Shown here piece by piece: positions 44,244 to 51,540 of a stretch of 64,000 bases of DNA (its first letter is position 1; each line of letters starts with the position of its first letter). Below the pieces are notes generated by a model. The model made no database searches, was not told the origin of the DNA, and was given only the letters and a program-made list of their open reading frames with translations. The stretch lies in NCBI GenBank assembly GCA_012862575.1, contig BLSF01000012.1, forward strand, positions 558,001 to 622,000, read 5' to 3'. A program made the position numbers and the translations under genes. Source of the DNA: Parietichytrium sp. I65-24A. Its lineage: Eukaryota > Sar > Bigyra > Thraustochytrida > Thraustochytriidae.

Positions 44244-44465
44244 AGCACTTTTCACTCGGTCCATGCCTTTTGTAGAGCTAGATTTTTTCGTACGCTCAAC
44301 TAGTAGCTAGTAATTTGAAAGACAAGCTAATGCACTCCTCTTGTTTGACCGTGAAATATTACAGTTAATAAGTGTCCATGCGATCATGGCACTTCCGGGT
44401 CTTCCGAGGACTCGATCGAGAAGCGTTGGAACTTTTAGCCATTCTTGCAATATTCTTGCCATTTA

Positions 44466-44516: not shown

Positions 44517-45254
44517 CTTGCCATGCTGAGTCATTGCTGATGCTCTTTCAGATCACTGCGAATCGATTTAGTTAATCCTATCTAGGCTAGACCTAGTATC
44601 TGCTAATGCCGCTGATGCGCGTGTGGTGCACACCTGCCCACTGTTACTAATATTCTAGGGAGCTCCAGTAGGACCCCGTTTCAAAGGTGTTCCAAATGCA
44701 GAGAATTTAGAGTCAGAGATGCATGGCAGGATTAGGAAGAGGTAAACTTTTCAGAAATCAGAAATTGCAGCATTTGGAGAGAGACGCGAGTCAGCAAAAA
44801 CACTTGCCCGTTCGATTCTTGATCGATTCTTGTCCGCAGGGTCCGCGAGCGCCACAAGATTAAACATTCATTTTAACTTTTTGCAGTGAAATTAACGAAA
44901 TACTTTATCTTATACCATAGCCTGATTTGGCGTGCCGAGCTCGCGGAAGGTCGGGGGACAGAGATGGACAAGGACGTAGCAGAAGAACAGAGCACTAGCA
45001 GCAAAGCGCAAGCTCGCACACAGAGATACACAGAGACACAGACACACTTTTACACGGAAACACAAGGCCTGCTTCTCCCATTCCACGCTCGCACGATCGC
45101 TCAAGTCGCCGTGGTCGCCATTCACTCTGAGTCGTTTGCATCAATGGCGTTCGCCAGACATGACCAGACTCCCAACTCCAATGAGCTCCGGAAGGTAGGC
45201 AAGTTGCACTTTTTCTATTTGCCTGTGCGCTCCTTTCTGGGCTCGTGCTTTTCA

Positions 45255-45320
45255 CTCATTCATTCATTCATTCATTCTTTCATTCTTTCATTCTTTCTTT
45301 CTTTCTTTCTTTCTTCTTTC
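45255..45320. repeat. ATTC/TTTC tetranucleotide microsatellite
   Basis: A run of CATT units passing into CTTT units, 65 bp, in the spacer upstream of the astacin gene. Confidence 0.9.
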
Positions 45321-45544
45321 TTGTCTTGTCTCTTGTGGTGCTACGCCGCAGTAAGTCTCTGCTCATCTCTGGACTAATACTTCCCAATTGATTGATTGAG
45401 ATTGATTGAGATGTGTGGTGGGTTAGAGTACATTCTCTTTTCTCTTTGTCTCTCGCAGTCTCTTCCTCTGTCTTGTGTCTTGTGTCATCGGGCGTAGGTT
45501 AGGGTGCTCGGAAGGGTGTCCTCGCCGAGGGGTGCGCGCGCGAG

Positions 45545-46948
45545 ATGGGTTCGACGTACATGGAGGGCGACATGGACGCCACGTACGAGGACGTGGCGGT
45601 GCTGTACGGGTCGTCGGTGGCAGACAGCTTGGTGTCGAACGGACTCCTCGCCTCAGGCACCGTGTCGCAGAGCGCGGACCAGCTTCGGTCCTCGATGCTG
45701 TGGACCACCCGCACAGCATACGGCGTGCAAGTGCCGTACACGTACGGGTCGGATCTGTCGGAATCGGACCAGGCTGTGATCCTCTCAGCGTTGACGGAAA
45801 TGGCCTCTAAAAGCGATAATGTAGTCACCTTCGTGGCATGGGATGGCTCGGAATCGGACTACATCTACATGCAGGGCGGGCAGACCGAGTGCTCGTCGCC
45901 AATCGGACGCAGGGGAGGCCAGCAGGTAATGCGGCTTGGATCTGCGTGCATGACGGTGGGCGGAGTGCAGCACCTCATGATGCACTCGCTCGGATTTCTG
46001 CACGAGCACACGCGCCCTGACAGGGACTTTTACATCACCGTCAACCAGGCCAACATCCCCGCGGCGGCTCTAGACTACTTCAGGACCACGCTGCTCATGC
46101 CGTCCGCGAACCTGTGGTACGACTACAGCTCCATCATGCACTTCGCGTCCACCGAGTACGCGTCCACCGGGGAGTCCATCACCTCGTCCTCGACCATCGG
46201 TCAGCGTGATGGACTAAGCACATTTGATGTTACGCGCCTGCGCCTGATGTACAGATGTGACGCGAACCCGCGCCCATACGAGAACGCTTGCACGGCAGAG
46301 TGCCCGTGCAAGTCGGGCGAGGACGGCACATGCCTGACTCACGAAGGATGCAAGTACCTAAGTCGGTGCGAGCACTGGAATACGGTGCAGAAGCGCTGCA
46401 AGGTGGTGTGGGATCTGTGCAAAGGCAGCAACCCGACTTGCCCGGCTGGAGAGGGGAGCTGTGACGATGACACCAACTGTGCGGACGGACTTGTTTGTTC
46501 AACTGAGCTGGACCAAATTGGCGCACGGCGGTGTACGTGGAAATCTGGGGAGGCACCAGTCGTCTCGGAGTGGGAATTTGTTTGGGTGGACACCATCAGC
46601 CCCACTAATGCACCTTCCTTCGCCCCGGTCACGGGATCCCCAACAACAACAACAGGTGAGTCTCTTGCACCCACGGGCGCAGGGGTTGGAATGGAAACAG
46701 AGGCGCCTACAAGTATAGGAGTTGGAAACATCCCAACCCCTCGGCCAACAGTTGCAAATTTATTTCCTGTGGTGGACTCTTCGACGTCTAACGCAACTTT
46801 TAATACCATAGAGTCGAAAAATGCAAATATTCCGGTCATTGTAACAGGTGTCCTGGGCGGAACATTGCTTGCATTACTTGCATGTGGCGTATTTTACATG
46901 CGCAAGCACAACATAAAGTCAATCTCTGCTTTGACTAACAGAGGCTGA
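45545..46948 (+). CDS. Membrane-anchored astacin-like protein lacking the catalytic glutamate
   Basis: A 467-aa open frame from ATG 45545. The astacin (M12A) domain spans about 50-240. The three zinc-ligand histidines are kept in HLMMHSLGFLHEHTRPDRD (143 on), as are the following Glu-His and Arg-x-Asp and the Met-turn YDYSSIMHFAS. The general-base Glu of HExxH, however, is Leu (codon CTC at 45974). A Cys-rich region (about 250-335) follows, then a Thr/Pro/Ser stalk (SPTNAPSFAPVTGSPTTTT) and one membrane helix (about 433-455) with a short basic tail. No signal peptide follows the ATG although topology demands one, so a first exon is probably missing. Active astacins are secreted zinc endopeptidases; this one should bind zinc but not cleave. 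The family is certain. Confidence 0.85.
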   Translation: MGSTYMEGDMDATYEDVAVLYGSSVADSLVSNGLLASGTVSQSADQLRSSMLWTTRTAYGVQVPYTYGSDLSESDQAVILSALTEMASKSDNVVTFVAWDGSESDYIYMQGGQTECSSPIGRRGGQQVMRLGSACMTVGGVQHLMMHSLGFLHEHTRPDRDFYITVNQANIPAAALDYFRTTLLMPSANLWYDYSSIMHFASTEYASTGESITSSSTIGQRDGLSTFDVTRLRLMYRCDANPRPYENACTAECPCKSGEDGTCLTHEGCKYLSRCEHWNTVQKRCKVVWDLCKGSNPTCPAGEGSCDDDTNCADGLVCSTELDQIGARRCTWKSGEAPVVSEWEFVWVDTISPTNAPSFAPVTGSPTTTTGESLAPTGAGVGMETEAPTSIGVGNIPTPRPTVANLFPVVDSSTSNATFNTIESKNANIPVIVTGVLGGTLLALLACGVFYMRKHNIKSISALTNRG

Positions 46949-47275: not shown

Positions 47276-50200
47276 CTAGCCCTGCTGCTGTTGCAACTCA
47301 ATGTACCTGCCACCCTGCGGTGCTCTCCTAGACGAGTGTGTCAGCCTCGGGCTGGTGATCTCCGTCGTCGTGGTTGTTGATGGGGCGCTTGGCTCGCCTC
47401 GCGCGCGTATAAGACAATCGTCTACGGATCGTCTAATCGTGCGATACAAGATCGACCATGCACTTTTCTCCTCCACTGCAAGGTCGCATACCTTGCGAGC
47501 CTTCTCCAAAAGTCTGTGAAGAGATTCCACACTTTTTACTATCCTTCTTTGCAATTTCTCGACACGCATCGAAGATTGCTCAAGCATGCTTACGCGTGAC
47601 CCACCTGCGCCAGCCTCCTTTCGCCCAGAGCCTTCCAGGTCAAGATCCTCCTCACCCTCGCTCTCGCCTTCGCTACTGCTTGCATCGCTTTGCGAGGACA
47701 CGAAACTAGGGGATCGCACGATCGACCCCGGCGCCACAGTAGGCTGGTGCTGCGCTTCTACTACAGAGAGGGTGGCATCAAGATTCCACTCGAGTTCCTG
47801 AATTGAAGAGAGTAACTGTGCGGAGCGTGGCAGGATGCCTTCTTGCAGCGATCTCGTCAAAACAGCGATTGACATTGACTGGTCTTCCAACTTTTTGGCC
47901 AGAGCAAGGGTTTCCTGCTTCGCTGCTTGCCGAAGACGTTTGTGTTTCTCAGCCTCTGTAAGTTTTGACTGCACCATGGTCTGCATTTCTTGCTCGGTGT
48001 TTCGGATTGCTTCTGCCTCCCTTCGATTCCGGTTTAACGTGTCCATGTATTCTTGCTCAAGCGAAGCAATCCTTTCGTCCTTTGCCGAGAGCTGAGTCTG
48101 CAATGCCTCTTCTCTGCTCTGGCTTTCTGTTTCGAGCTTTTCCTGCATAGCGTTAAACTTGGATTGTTCCTTCAAAAGAGCCGCTTTAAGTGCCGCCTCA
48201 GTTTCCTTGCGGAAGTCGTCCAATTTTTGCTGGTGCTTTTTGTTTAGCGACTCTATGTAAGCCTTTGCTTGCCTCAGCTTTCCTTGAGTATCAGATTTGT
48301 CATTTGAAATTTCCAGCTGTAGACTCTCGATCTTGGCTTCCAGGTCAAGACGGGTAGCAACAGCCTCAGCTTGTTTTTCTTGTAAGCTTTGCAGCTCTTT
48401 GCGGTGTGTCTCTTTGGCTTCATGAAGGGCAGACTCGGCTTTGCGCAGCGCTTCGGAATGAACATCGTCGATGCCACTCAATGTTTGTTGCTTGGAGGCG
48501 AGCTCCTTTTCCAAGCTTTGCACTTTTGTGTTTATTTTTTCAAGAGCGGTAGCGAGCTCTTGGCGATCAGACTCGCTTTCCTCCATCTTGTGGGTTGCTA
48601 TAGAAGCTTGCTCGCTGATCCTCTCTGCCTTTGCGAGAAGCTCTTCTTTCTCCTGCTCCCAGGCCTCAGACAACGCCTTCAGTTTTGTGTTAAACTCTTC
48701 TTGCAGAGTCTCCCGTTGCTTTTCAAGCGCCGCTTGTTCGGCGTCCTGTGCATCGCGGCGAATACGAGCCACCAAAGAGTCGCCCTCGCGTCGAATGTCG
48801 CTTTGTTGAGTCTCAAAGCGCGTGGTCGTCTCCGCCAGCTCATCCTCAAGAGAAGCGATTCTCTGTTGCATTTCGGCGGTCACTTGCGCGCTTGTGCTTG
48901 CATTAGCCTCAAACTCTGCCTTCAGTGACTTGAGCGCCTCAAGTTCCAAACTTTGAGCGCTCCTCAAGGCCTCCAGTTCTTCTACGCGGGCTTCAAGTTG
49001 AGCCTTTTCTTTGGACATACTATCCTGCGCAGACATCAGCTGCTCGTTTCTAGAGTTGATCTCATGCAACTGGCTTTCGAGGTCTCTCTTAATATTTTTG
49101 CAGTGTTCAAGCTCATCGCGAAGGGTTTGCAGTTCCTCGAGCAAGCTTTTCTTGACTTCCTCCTCGTCCCCGTTCTCTACTTCACGCCCTGCAATGTGAT
49201 TCTCATCATCGTGGCCACCTCTTACTTTCTCTTCGAGGACAGCTAACGCACTTAGGGCCTCATCTAGAAGTCTAGCCTTTTCTTTCAATGCCGCCTCAAG
49301 CTCCTGGACTGAATCATTTCGGCTGGAAAGCTCTGTACTTGCTTTTTCAAGCTCTAGCTCCAAGGAGGCTAATTTCTGTTCTCTCTCTGCAGAGCCGCTC
49401 TCGCCTGCGTCCTGATGCTCGAATGCATTGTCGAGAGATTCACTCGCTTTGAACGAGCCTTCCTCTGAAGCTTCGGGAGCATCTCGCAAGGTCTCGAGTT
49501 CTCGTAACAAGTGTTGATAATCGTCTTGTTGCTTCACATTCGTCTCTTGAAGCTCCTTCAGGGTTTCTGAAAGTCTATCGTTTTCAGATTTCACTTCCTG
49601 TAGCGAAGCAAGAACGACCTCGAGCTCGGCAATCCGCTCTGCTTGTGCTGCCAGCTCCATTTCCGCAGCGTTGCTGGCAGTTTCAGGTGTGGCTCTGGAA
49701 TTTTCAAGCTCAGTGATTTGCGCCTCTAGCTCTGCGATGCGTCGTTCTTTCTCATTACTTTGCGTTTCGGCGACAGGTTGCGGCATCGGAGCTGAAAATG
49801 CATCAAAAAGGTCATTTTGGGATTCTGAGACGTCGACTTGCAAAAGCATGTCTTCCTGCGGGCTTTGACCGCTGTGACCACTCAGATCCAGCAGATTTTC
49901 AGACTCCGCCATCCCAGGTGAGCCCTCCTTTGAATTATTGCTTTGGACTTCCGTGCTCGAATATTGGGCTTTAAGCTTGCTAGATTCCTCAAGTGCCTCC
50001 GCGAGTTTTGCCTCAAGATCTACAATCTTTTTAGCGGCAATCTCATCAGCCTCTGTCTCTTCGCGGGATGCTGACTCTTCCAGTTGTGCTCGGAGCGAAT
50101 TGGACTCCTCGATAGCCTCTGTTAATTTTGTCTCAAGCTCCTCGATCCTCTGAGCTGCCATACCATCGGCATTATGATCTGTCTCTTCGCTAGGTGTCAA

Positions 50201-51439
50201 CTCTTCCAGTTGTACTCGTAGTGAGCTTGATTCCTCGAGAGCCTCTGAGAGCTTTGACTCAAGCTCCTCAATCTTTTGGGTCGCCTGTTTAATCTCATCA
50301 TCGTCGTCGTCGTCGTTGTCGCGAGCTGCTGACTCTTGCAGCTGTGTTCGGAGCGCGCTGGACTCCTCTAGGGCCTCTGCTAGTTTTGACTCAAGGTCCT
50401 CAATCCTTTGGGCTGCAATGATGCTGTTGTCTTCGGGAGGTACTGACTCTTCCAGTTGTCCTCGGAGCGAGTTGGATTCCTCGACAGCCTCTGCTAATTT
50501 CGCCTCAAGCTCCTCGATCCTTTGAGCTGTAATGCCATCAGCAGCTGTCTCTTTGCGGGATGCCGACTCTTCTAATTGTGCCCGTAGTGAATTTGATTCC
50601 TCAAGAGCATCTGAGAGCTTTGACTCAAGTTCCTCGAGTGTTTGGGTCGTCTGTTCGGCAGTGTTGTCAAATTCGCGAGGTGCCGACTCTTGCAGTTGTG
50701 TTCGGAGCGCATTGGACTCCTCGACAGCCTCTGATAATTTGGTCTCAAGCTCCTCGATCCTCTGAGCTGCGATGCCATCATTGCCTTCGCGATGTTCAGA
50801 TTCCTCCAGTCGTGCTCTGAGTGCATTGGACTCCTCGAGGGCCTCTGCCAGCTTCGACTCGAGCGAAATGATGGTTTCAGAAGCAGACTCGCTACTTTGA
50901 GCATTGTTCTTCGCGATTGACTCAAGTTCCCCGATCCGCTGCGAAAGTCTCGCGTTCTCCTCGTCGCTGCTCTTCACCTTCCCTGCTAAGGCATCGCGCT
51001 CTTCGCAAAGTGCAACCTTCTCGGCCTCCAGCTTGGAAGCTTTGTCTCTAAAGTTCTCCGCTTGCTCCAGAGCCCCTTCCAGCCTCCTCGAAACCTCTTC
51101 TGTTGCAAGTCCTTTGTCCTTCTCAAGCCTGAGCTCAGCCTCTAGCTCGCCCAGGCGCTCCTGCGCAGTGGCCAGTTCCAGCGTGAGATCCTTGGCTCTC
51201 TGGGCAAATTGGTCCTGCTCTTCCAGTTTGGCCTTCAACTTGATAAACTCCTGCTTGGCTCTCTCCTTGATCTCGCCCATGCGCTTCTCCTTCTCCTCCA
51301 GCCTGGCATCTTTTTCGGCCAGCTCCTCTTTCAGCTGCGACACAAACTGCTTGGTCTTCCTTTTGAGCTCCTCCAGCTGCCCTGTCTTTTCTGCTAGACG
51401 CCTCTCCAGATCACCCACAGCTCCCTCACCTTCTGCCAT
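47276..51439 (-). CDS. Giant coiled-coil protein with internal repeats (golgin-like), 1387 aa
   Basis: Starts at ATG 51437-51439 and is intronless. Nearly the whole length is heptad-patterned and rich in Glu, Ala, Leu and Lys. Residues about 1-95 (KQFVSQLKEELAEKDARLEE; RAKQEFIKLKAKLEEQD) resemble the N-terminal coil of golgin/TPR-type tethers. Residues about 190-500 are a tandem array of eight 37-43-aa units with the core ELESKLAEALEESNALRAQLEES. A less regular coiled coil follows to about 1240, then a Ser/acidic segment and a final helical part (VEKLQRRIVKSVESLHRLLEKARKVCDLA). The protein ends in a Thr-rich and poly-Gln tail. There is no TM segment, GRIP or GRAB motif that I can recognise. 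Role as a vesicle tether or structural rod is inferred from architecture only. Confidence 0.7.
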   Translation of the reverse strand: MAEGEGAVGDLERRLAEKTGQLEELKRKTKQFVSQLKEELAEKDARLEEKEKRMGEIKERAKQEFIKLKAKLEEQDQFAQRAKDLTLELATAQERLGELEAELRLEKDKGLATEEVSRRLEGALEQAENFRDKASKLEAEKVALCEERDALAGKVKSSDEENARLSQRIGELESIAKNNAQSSESASETIISLESKLAEALEESNALRARLEESEHREGNDGIAAQRIEELETKLSEAVEESNALRTQLQESAPREFDNTAEQTTQTLEELESKLSDALEESNSLRAQLEESASRKETAADGITAQRIEELEAKLAEAVEESNSLRGQLEESVPPEDNSIIAAQRIEDLESKLAEALEESSALRTQLQESAARDNDDDDDDEIKQATQKIEELESKLSEALEESSSLRVQLEELTPSEETDHNADGMAAQRIEELETKLTEAIEESNSLRAQLEESASREETEADEIAAKKIVDLEAKLAEALEESSKLKAQYSSTEVQSNNSKEGSPGMAESENLLDLSGHSGQSPQEDMLLQVDVSESQNDLFDAFSAPMPQPVAETQSNEKERRIAELEAQITELENSRATPETASNAAEMELAAQAERIAELEVVLASLQEVKSENDRLSETLKELQETNVKQQDDYQHLLRELETLRDAPEASEEGSFKASESLDNAFEHQDAGESGSAEREQKLASLELELEKASTELSSRNDSVQELEAALKEKARLLDEALSALAVLEEKVRGGHDDENHIAGREVENGDEEEVKKSLLEELQTLRDELEHCKNIKRDLESQLHEINSRNEQLMSAQDSMSKEKAQLEARVEELEALRSAQSLELEALKSLKAEFEANASTSAQVTAEMQQRIASLEDELAETTTRFETQQSDIRREGDSLVARIRRDAQDAEQAALEKQRETLQEEFNTKLKALSEAWEQEKEELLAKAERISEQASIATHKMEESESDRQELATALEKINTKVQSLEKELASKQQTLSGIDDVHSEALRKAESALHEAKETHRKELQSLQEKQAEAVATRLDLEAKIESLQLEISNDKSDTQGKLRQAKAYIESLNKKHQQKLDDFRKETEAALKAALLKEQSKFNAMQEKLETESQSREEALQTQLSAKDERIASLEQEYMDTLNRNRREAEAIRNTEQEMQTMVQSKLTEAEKHKRLRQAAKQETLALAKKLEDQSMSIAVLTRSLQEGILPRSAQLLSSIQELEWNLDATLSVVEAQHQPTVAPGSIVRSPSFVSSQSDASSSEGESEGEEDLDLEGSGRKEAGAGGSRVSMLEQSSMRVEKLQRRIVKSVESLHRLLEKARKVCDLAVEEKSAWSILYRTIRRSVDDCLIRARGEPSAPSTTTTTEITSPRLTHSSRRAPQGGRYIELQQQQG
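49950..50880 (-). repeat. Eight in-frame ~120-bp repeats in the coiled-coil gene
   Basis: Units of 111-129 bp encode ELE(S/T/A)KL(A/S)EA(L/V)EES(N/S)(A/S)LR(A/T)QL(E/Q)ES with a variable spacer rich in Glu, Asp and Thr. The conserved cores and divergent spacers suggest repeated unequal exchange followed by selection on the heptad core. Confidence 0.85.
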
Positions 51440-51540
51440 CGCCTCAACCGCATGTACTCACATACGAATCCCTACTTGTACTTGTTCTTTCCCTCTGCGC
51501 CTTTGTTCTTTTGATCGATCTACCAACTTCCTATACTGGG

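What the first reader, a model, noticed from the sequence alone, without database searches (positions are those of the whole stretch)
45971..46009. Astacin-family ectoprotein with Leu replacing the catalytic Glu: a pseudo-protease
The motif reads H-L-M-M-H-S-L-G-F-L-H-E instead of H-E-x-x-H-x-x-G-x-x-H-E. All three zinc histidines, the downstream R-x-D and the Met-turn (SIMHF) are kept, so zinc binding and fold look preserved while the general base is gone. The codon is CTC, three changes from GAG, so a single-base error does not explain it. With a Cys-rich module, Thr/Pro-rich stalk and membrane anchor, this could be a zinc-dependent binding or adhesion receptor made from a protease fold.
Basis: partly seen in the sequence, partly recalled or inferred. 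Interest (0 to 1): 0.75.

Follow-up and report, generated by a model that had tools for sequence, protein, structure and literature searches.

The report
Membrane-anchored astacin lacking catalytic residues
A gene in an unnamed eukaryote encodes a protein-cutting enzyme fold that keeps its zinc-binding histidines but has lost two residues needed for cutting, so it probably binds rather than cuts.

Summary
The motif is real. An open frame of 481 codons (45503-46948, +) holds one astacin domain (PF01400, E 7e-39). After the first zinc histidine stands Leu (CTC, 45974-45976), where 84 of 84 other astacin loci examined here have Glu (3 from the same genome, 80 prokaryotic, 1 from the viral collection). 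The three histidines, the family glutamate, RxDRD, the Met-turn Met and two domain cysteines are kept. The fold is predicted confidently and matches solved astacins (3vtg, rmsd 1.4). A pseudo-protease is the best reading.

Weak points: no orthologue could be examined. The gene's branch is long (1.82, against 0.45 and 0.52 for the two closest paralogues). No clear signal peptide was found, so a surface location rests on a C-terminal membrane segment, a Cys-rich module and a Pro/Thr/Ser-rich stalk. A gene in decay remains a rival. Zinc binding and receptor function are inferred.

Pseudo-metzincins that keep the three histidines are known (ADAM7, HQLGHNLGMQHD). My text searches found no published pseudo-astacin. 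New variant of a known kind.

The parts
45545..46948 (+). Pseudo-astacin reading frame from first ATG to stop (467 aa); the frame is open from 45503
45545..45697 (+). Pro-segment (boundaries approximate), with the EGDMD motif at 45563-45577 that aligns with QGDM/EGDI/QGDI of the three paralogues
   Evidence: alignment; coordinates; role as aspartate switch is from the family literature, not tested
45728..46258 (+). Astacin domain (Pfam match, residues 62-238)
   Evidence: structure model
45971..46006 (+). Zinc motif HLMMHSLGFLHE; general-base Glu replaced by Leu at 45974-45976
46130..46144 (+). Met-turn SIMHF; zinc-ligand Tyr replaced by Phe at 46142-46144
46289..46540 (+). Cys-rich module (residues 249-332, 13 Cys); its two ends align with the CPC...GQxSC...DGLxC module of paralogues L002 and L003, with about 45 extra residues between
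   Evidence: no Pfam or PDB match
46595..46828 (+). Pro/Thr/Ser-rich stalk (residues 351-428)
46829..46891 (+). Predicted membrane segment IPVIVTGVLGGTLLALLACGV (residues 429-449), then a tail of 18 residues with basic residues first
   Evidence: hydropathy
45144..45194 (+). Possible upstream coding exon (donor CGGAAG|GTAGGC at 45195, acceptor TTAG|GGT at 45503, phases fit); not shown to be used

Best explanation
A single-pass membrane pseudo-astacin. The domain folds like an astacin and keeps three zinc histidines, but general-base Glu is Leu and the tyrosine ligand is Phe, so peptide hydrolysis is very probably gone (shown: the sequence changes; inferred: inactivity). The cleft, perhaps still holding zinc and perhaps still covered by its pro-segment Asp, now works as a binding surface at the end of a stalk: it holds a peptide, glycoprotein or partner protein, for example substrates of the three intact paralogous astacins, as a receptor, adhesin or decoy (inferred, no direct evidence).
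For: Glu in 84 of 84 and Tyr in 84 of 84 other loci, Leu and Phe here. Three paralogues in the same genome keep both residues. Of 38 columns at least 85% conserved in a 54-row alignment the protein keeps 31; 6 of its 7 departures lie in the active-site helix or its extension (E144L, A148S, Q155H, S156T) or in the Met-turn stretch (Y200F, F205Y). Long open frame with position-specific G+C (0.525, 0.516, 0.681) like the paralogues. Astacin profile score 136.6 bits in the genome search, close to the intact paralogues at 136.7, 142.1 and 148.1. Confident domain model (blocks of residues 61-180 at pLDDT 91-98), closest to solved astacins (3lqb E 4.0e-19; 3vtg rmsd 1.4, TM by target 0.86). Two of three paralogues have an arginine/lysine pair between pro-segment and domain (RR in L002, KRR in L004); this protein has a lone R there (by eye).
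Against: End branch 1.82 against 0.45 and 0.52 for L002 and L003 (bootstrap not settled). It is one of the five most departing rows of 54 at conserved columns, and paralogue L003 departs at as many (7) with its catalytic residues intact. No orthologue seen. No convincing signal peptide in any ATG-started frame upstream or in the two joins that fit in phase, so it may not enter the secretory pathway as drawn. No expression, zinc or activity data. The domain is modelled without metal, and the Cys module, stalk and membrane segment are not modelled with confidence (pLDDT mostly below 50 from residue 241).
Confidence: 0.6

Rival explanations
1. A gene losing function: an astacin copy under relaxed constraint, still open by chance or recency, whose catalytic residues and signal peptide have already gone.
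For: Long branch; no clear signal peptide although the three paralogues begin with a signal-like stretch in the same exon (by eye); 7 of 38 conserved columns changed.
Against: 1404 bases from ATG without a stop or frameshift at 28-37% identity from the paralogues (the percentages are 37, 31, 26), codon-position G+C still structured, fold residues and cysteines kept, changes gathered at the catalytic site.
Confidence: 0.25
2. Still an active peptidase that uses another base, with Leu and Phe tolerated.
For: All three zinc histidines kept; some 'pseudo-enzymes' proved active with shifted residues (said in the abstract of PMC10211241, listing only).
Against: The helix reads HLMMH, with no acidic residue near the lost one; the transition-state tyrosine is lost too; the family literature calls the Glu the general base required for catalysis (PMC9848320 passages).
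Confidence: 0.08
3. A sequencing or assembly error at the motif.
For: One assembly only; no reads on hand.
Against: Three bases differ at the Glu codon and the Tyr codon is changed 168 bases away, frame open throughout; the genome search found one full-length copy, so no second version contradicts it.
Confidence: 0.03

Closest known systems
Astacins (MEROPS M12A, PF01400): hatching enzymes, crayfish astacin, BMP1, meprins
   Same: Domain fold, three zinc histidines, family Glu after the third, RxDRD, Met-turn Met, pro-segment GD motif
   Different: General-base Glu is Leu and the Met-turn Tyr is Phe
Pseudo-peptidase ADAMs (M12B), nearest ADAM7 (HQLGHNLGMQHD)
   Same: Membrane-anchored metzincin; ADAM7 keeps three histidines while Glu is replaced (table passage of PMC11266112)
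   Different: Another metzincin family, with disintegrin and other modules; here an astacin with its own Cys module, and the astacin tyrosine is lost as well
Meprins (membrane or secreted astacins)
   Same: Astacin domain on a multidomain ectodomain
   Different: No MAM, TRAF or EGF-like match: Pfam found only Astacin; meprins are active

Membership tests
Astacin family (M12A), by descent | Match to PF01400 above the curated cut-off | tested here: met
   133.8 bits against 22.5
Astacin family (M12A), by descent | HExxHxxGxxHExxRxDRD with the family Glu after the third His | tested here: not met
   All but the general-base Glu is there: HLMMHSLGFLHEHTRPDRD
Astacin family (M12A), by descent | SIMHY Met-turn with zinc-ligand Tyr | tested here: not met
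   SIMHF; Met kept, Tyr lost
Astacin family (M12A), by descent | Astacin fold | tested here: met
   Model against PDB: top matches are astacins
Astacin family (M12A), by descent | Signal peptide | tested here: inconclusive
   None evident; no trained predictor and no transcript on hand
Active astacin peptidase | Cleaves peptide bonds, zinc dependent | not testable with these tools
   Needs purified protein
Pseudo-peptidase (inactive homologue) | Catalytic residues lost, fold kept | tested here: met
Pseudo-peptidase (inactive homologue) | Loss conserved in orthologues | tested here: inconclusive
   No orthologue in the collections searched; they hold few or no eukaryotes

The most novel reading that the evidence does not exclude
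A membrane-anchored astacin-derived receptor that still binds zinc with three histidines, permanently in a zymogen-like state, capturing the substrates of the active secreted paralogues: a pseudo-astacin counterpart of the pseudo-peptidase ADAMs, arisen independently outside animals.
Probability: 0.25. Interest if true: 0.6.

Novelty: new variant of a known kind. Interest (0 to 1): 0.4.

Why it matters
Pseudo-metzincins that I could find in print are ADAMs and relatives. An astacin outside animals that lost both catalytic residues but kept the zinc histidines would be an independent case of a protease fold turned into a binding module, and would let one ask whether zinc alone supports binding.

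Tried and rejected
Orthologue search with the protein in viral contigs: 1 stretch matched a pattern, none a relative. The same collection with the four-paralogue alignment: 1 relative, L089, with Glu and Tyr.

Organism: the small-subunit rRNA search failed twice through machine errors, and a conserved rRNA pattern had no exact match. No chlorophyll a/b-binding match. No PfaD match over the cut-off, only 4 weak ones. Gaps and withheld stretches mean these are not proofs of absence. I do not name the organism; a heterotrophic stramenopile is a guess from the Pro/Thr repeats (recalled).

Cys module: no Pfam match up to E 5, no PDB sequence match up to E 1.

Intron in the stalk: a strong donor (CAG|GTGAGT at 46656) exists and six of the nine later YAG acceptors examined keep the frame. 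An intron is possible; acceptors at 46682-46811 would leave the membrane segment whole. Not resolved.

Origin of the change: HELM occurs in 6 of the other loci (letters 3-4 'LM'), so HELMH to HLMMH by loss of GAG and gain of ATG is as conceivable as three substitutions; not testable here.

Text: searches listed no paper on a pseudo-astacin. Only top listings were seen, subscription journals are mostly missing, and MEROPS non-peptidase homologues of M12A exist by my recall. The C. elegans astacin paper (PMC2824743) and a scorpion paper (PMC4398375) were seen as passages and say nothing on it.

Full report
What is there. The window lies in an unnamed assembly of 42,540,916 bases in 172 contigs. 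On the + strand a frame is open from 45503 to the stop at 46948; its first ATG is at 45545. Pfam finds one family, Astacin, at residues 62-238, 133.8 bits against a cut-off of 22.5. By sequence alone the nearest solved structures are the fish hatching enzymes 3vtg and 3lqb (E 1.3e-28 and 3.7e-26). After the domain come 13 cysteines in residues 249-330, a Pro/Thr/Ser-rich stretch, one strong hydrophobic segment at residues 429-449, and a short tail that begins with basic residues.

The substitution. Codons 45971-46009 give HLMMHSLGFLHEH. The same genome has four astacin loci. The three others read HEFLHALGIFHE, HEVIHALSVFHE and HEFLHAAGMGHE, with Met-turns SVMHY, SVMHY and SLMMY. A scan of the bacterial and archaeal genome collection used two peptide patterns that do not cover the Glu position and that allow Tyr or Phe in the Met-turn. 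One more came from the viral collection. With the three paralogues that makes 84 loci: all 84 were alignable, 84 of 84 have Glu and 84 of 84 have Tyr, and this protein alone has Leu and Phe. The sample is the 80 closest to a normal astacin out of 533, so it understates how often such losses occur.

A second loss. In astacins the SIMHY tyrosine binds zinc and swings out to stabilise the reaction intermediate, and the Glu is the general base (PMC9848320, passages). Here it is SIMHF. Two independent catalytic residues are therefore gone.

What is kept. In a 54-row alignment (this protein plus 53 of the 80 long rows prepared) 38 columns are at least 85% conserved. This protein departs at 7: E144L, A148S, Q155H, S156T, Y200F, F205Y and a gap at T210. 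It keeps the other 31, and all ten columns invariant in the alignment (S118, G121, three His, E154, D159, R160, S196, M198). Five rows of 54, this one among them, depart at 7 or more. L003 also departs at 7, four of them where its row was cut short or gapped or altered near the end, so the number alone is not special; the places are.

Fold. AlphaFold2 on that alignment gives blocks of residues 61-180 at pLDDT 91-98, and an active-site helix at 138-148. The whole-protein mean is only 63.6, because residues beyond 240 are mostly below 50. Foldseek puts solved astacins first: 3lqb E 4.0e-19, 3vtg rmsd 1.4 with TM by target 0.86, 1ast TM 0.82. Metal is not modelled, and I had no coordinates with which to measure the site.

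Evidence against a stable function. In a maximum-likelihood tree of 54 domains the end branch of this protein is 1.82, against 0.45 and 0.52 for L002 and L003, 1.48 for L004, and a median of 0.3. The bootstrap had not settled and long branches are placed unsurely. The protein falls in an open six-row group with L002, L003 and three myxobacterial rows. Its Cys module and pro-segment also align best with L002 and L003. So it evolved fast, which fits both a new role and relaxed constraint. Open frame and codon-position G+C (0.525, 0.516, 0.681) argue against long neutral decay.

Topology. The three paralogues begin, by eye, with signal-like stretches in the same exon. This gene does not. Among ATG-started frames from 44250 on, only the one at 44378 has a strongly hydrophobic 12-residue stretch (mean 2.72), and it ends at a stop after 30 codons without a join in phase that I could find (join checked by hand). 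Two joins fit in phase: 45144-45194 to 45503, which gives no hydrophobic start, and 45144-45350 to 45503, which gives a long hydrophobic stretch encoded by a simple repeat. No transcript is on hand. The ectodomain picture therefore rests on the membrane segment, the basic tail after it, and the cysteines.

Mechanism. Best reading: a membrane-anchored binding protein made from an astacin, inactive as a protease, perhaps with zinc held by three histidines and by the Asp of the kept EGDMD pro-segment motif, where the paralogues have GD too (aspartate switch from passages of PMC9848320). Inactivity is strongly inferred; zinc binding is plausible; the ligand is unknown.

Known or new. Pseudo-peptidases of the ADAM family are reviewed in PMC11266112 (passages). 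ADAM7 keeps three histidines and loses the Glu. The only mention of astacins in that text is as a metzincin family. PMC9848320 reports fewer than 400 astacins in eukaryotes outside Holozoa, about 200 of them in Stramenopila, and has no occurrence of 'inactive' in the text held. My eight text searches listed no pseudo-astacin paper, within the limits stated in Tried and rejected. I rate it a new variant of a known kind, interest 0.4.

Noticed in passing
L002:2140-2643 and the matching stretch of L003: Two intact paralogues carry an insert of well over 100 residues inside the astacin domain, between the Met-turn and the C-terminal helix. In L002 it resembles a ricin-type lectin (PF00652, 26.1 bits, below the cut-off of 29); the L003 stretch matched no family.
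   Followed up: partly
L004: A third paralogue has SLMMY instead of SIMHY and HEQSSVDRD instead of HEQSRxDRD, but keeps Glu and Tyr.
   Followed up: no
45255-45330: Tetranucleotide repeats (CATT then CTTT type) upstream of the gene; in one frame they read as a long hydrophobic stretch.
   Followed up: partly
47276-51457 (-): Convergent neighbour with an open frame of 1393 codons, rich in Glu, Leu and Ser, that looks like a long coiled-coil protein.
   Followed up: no
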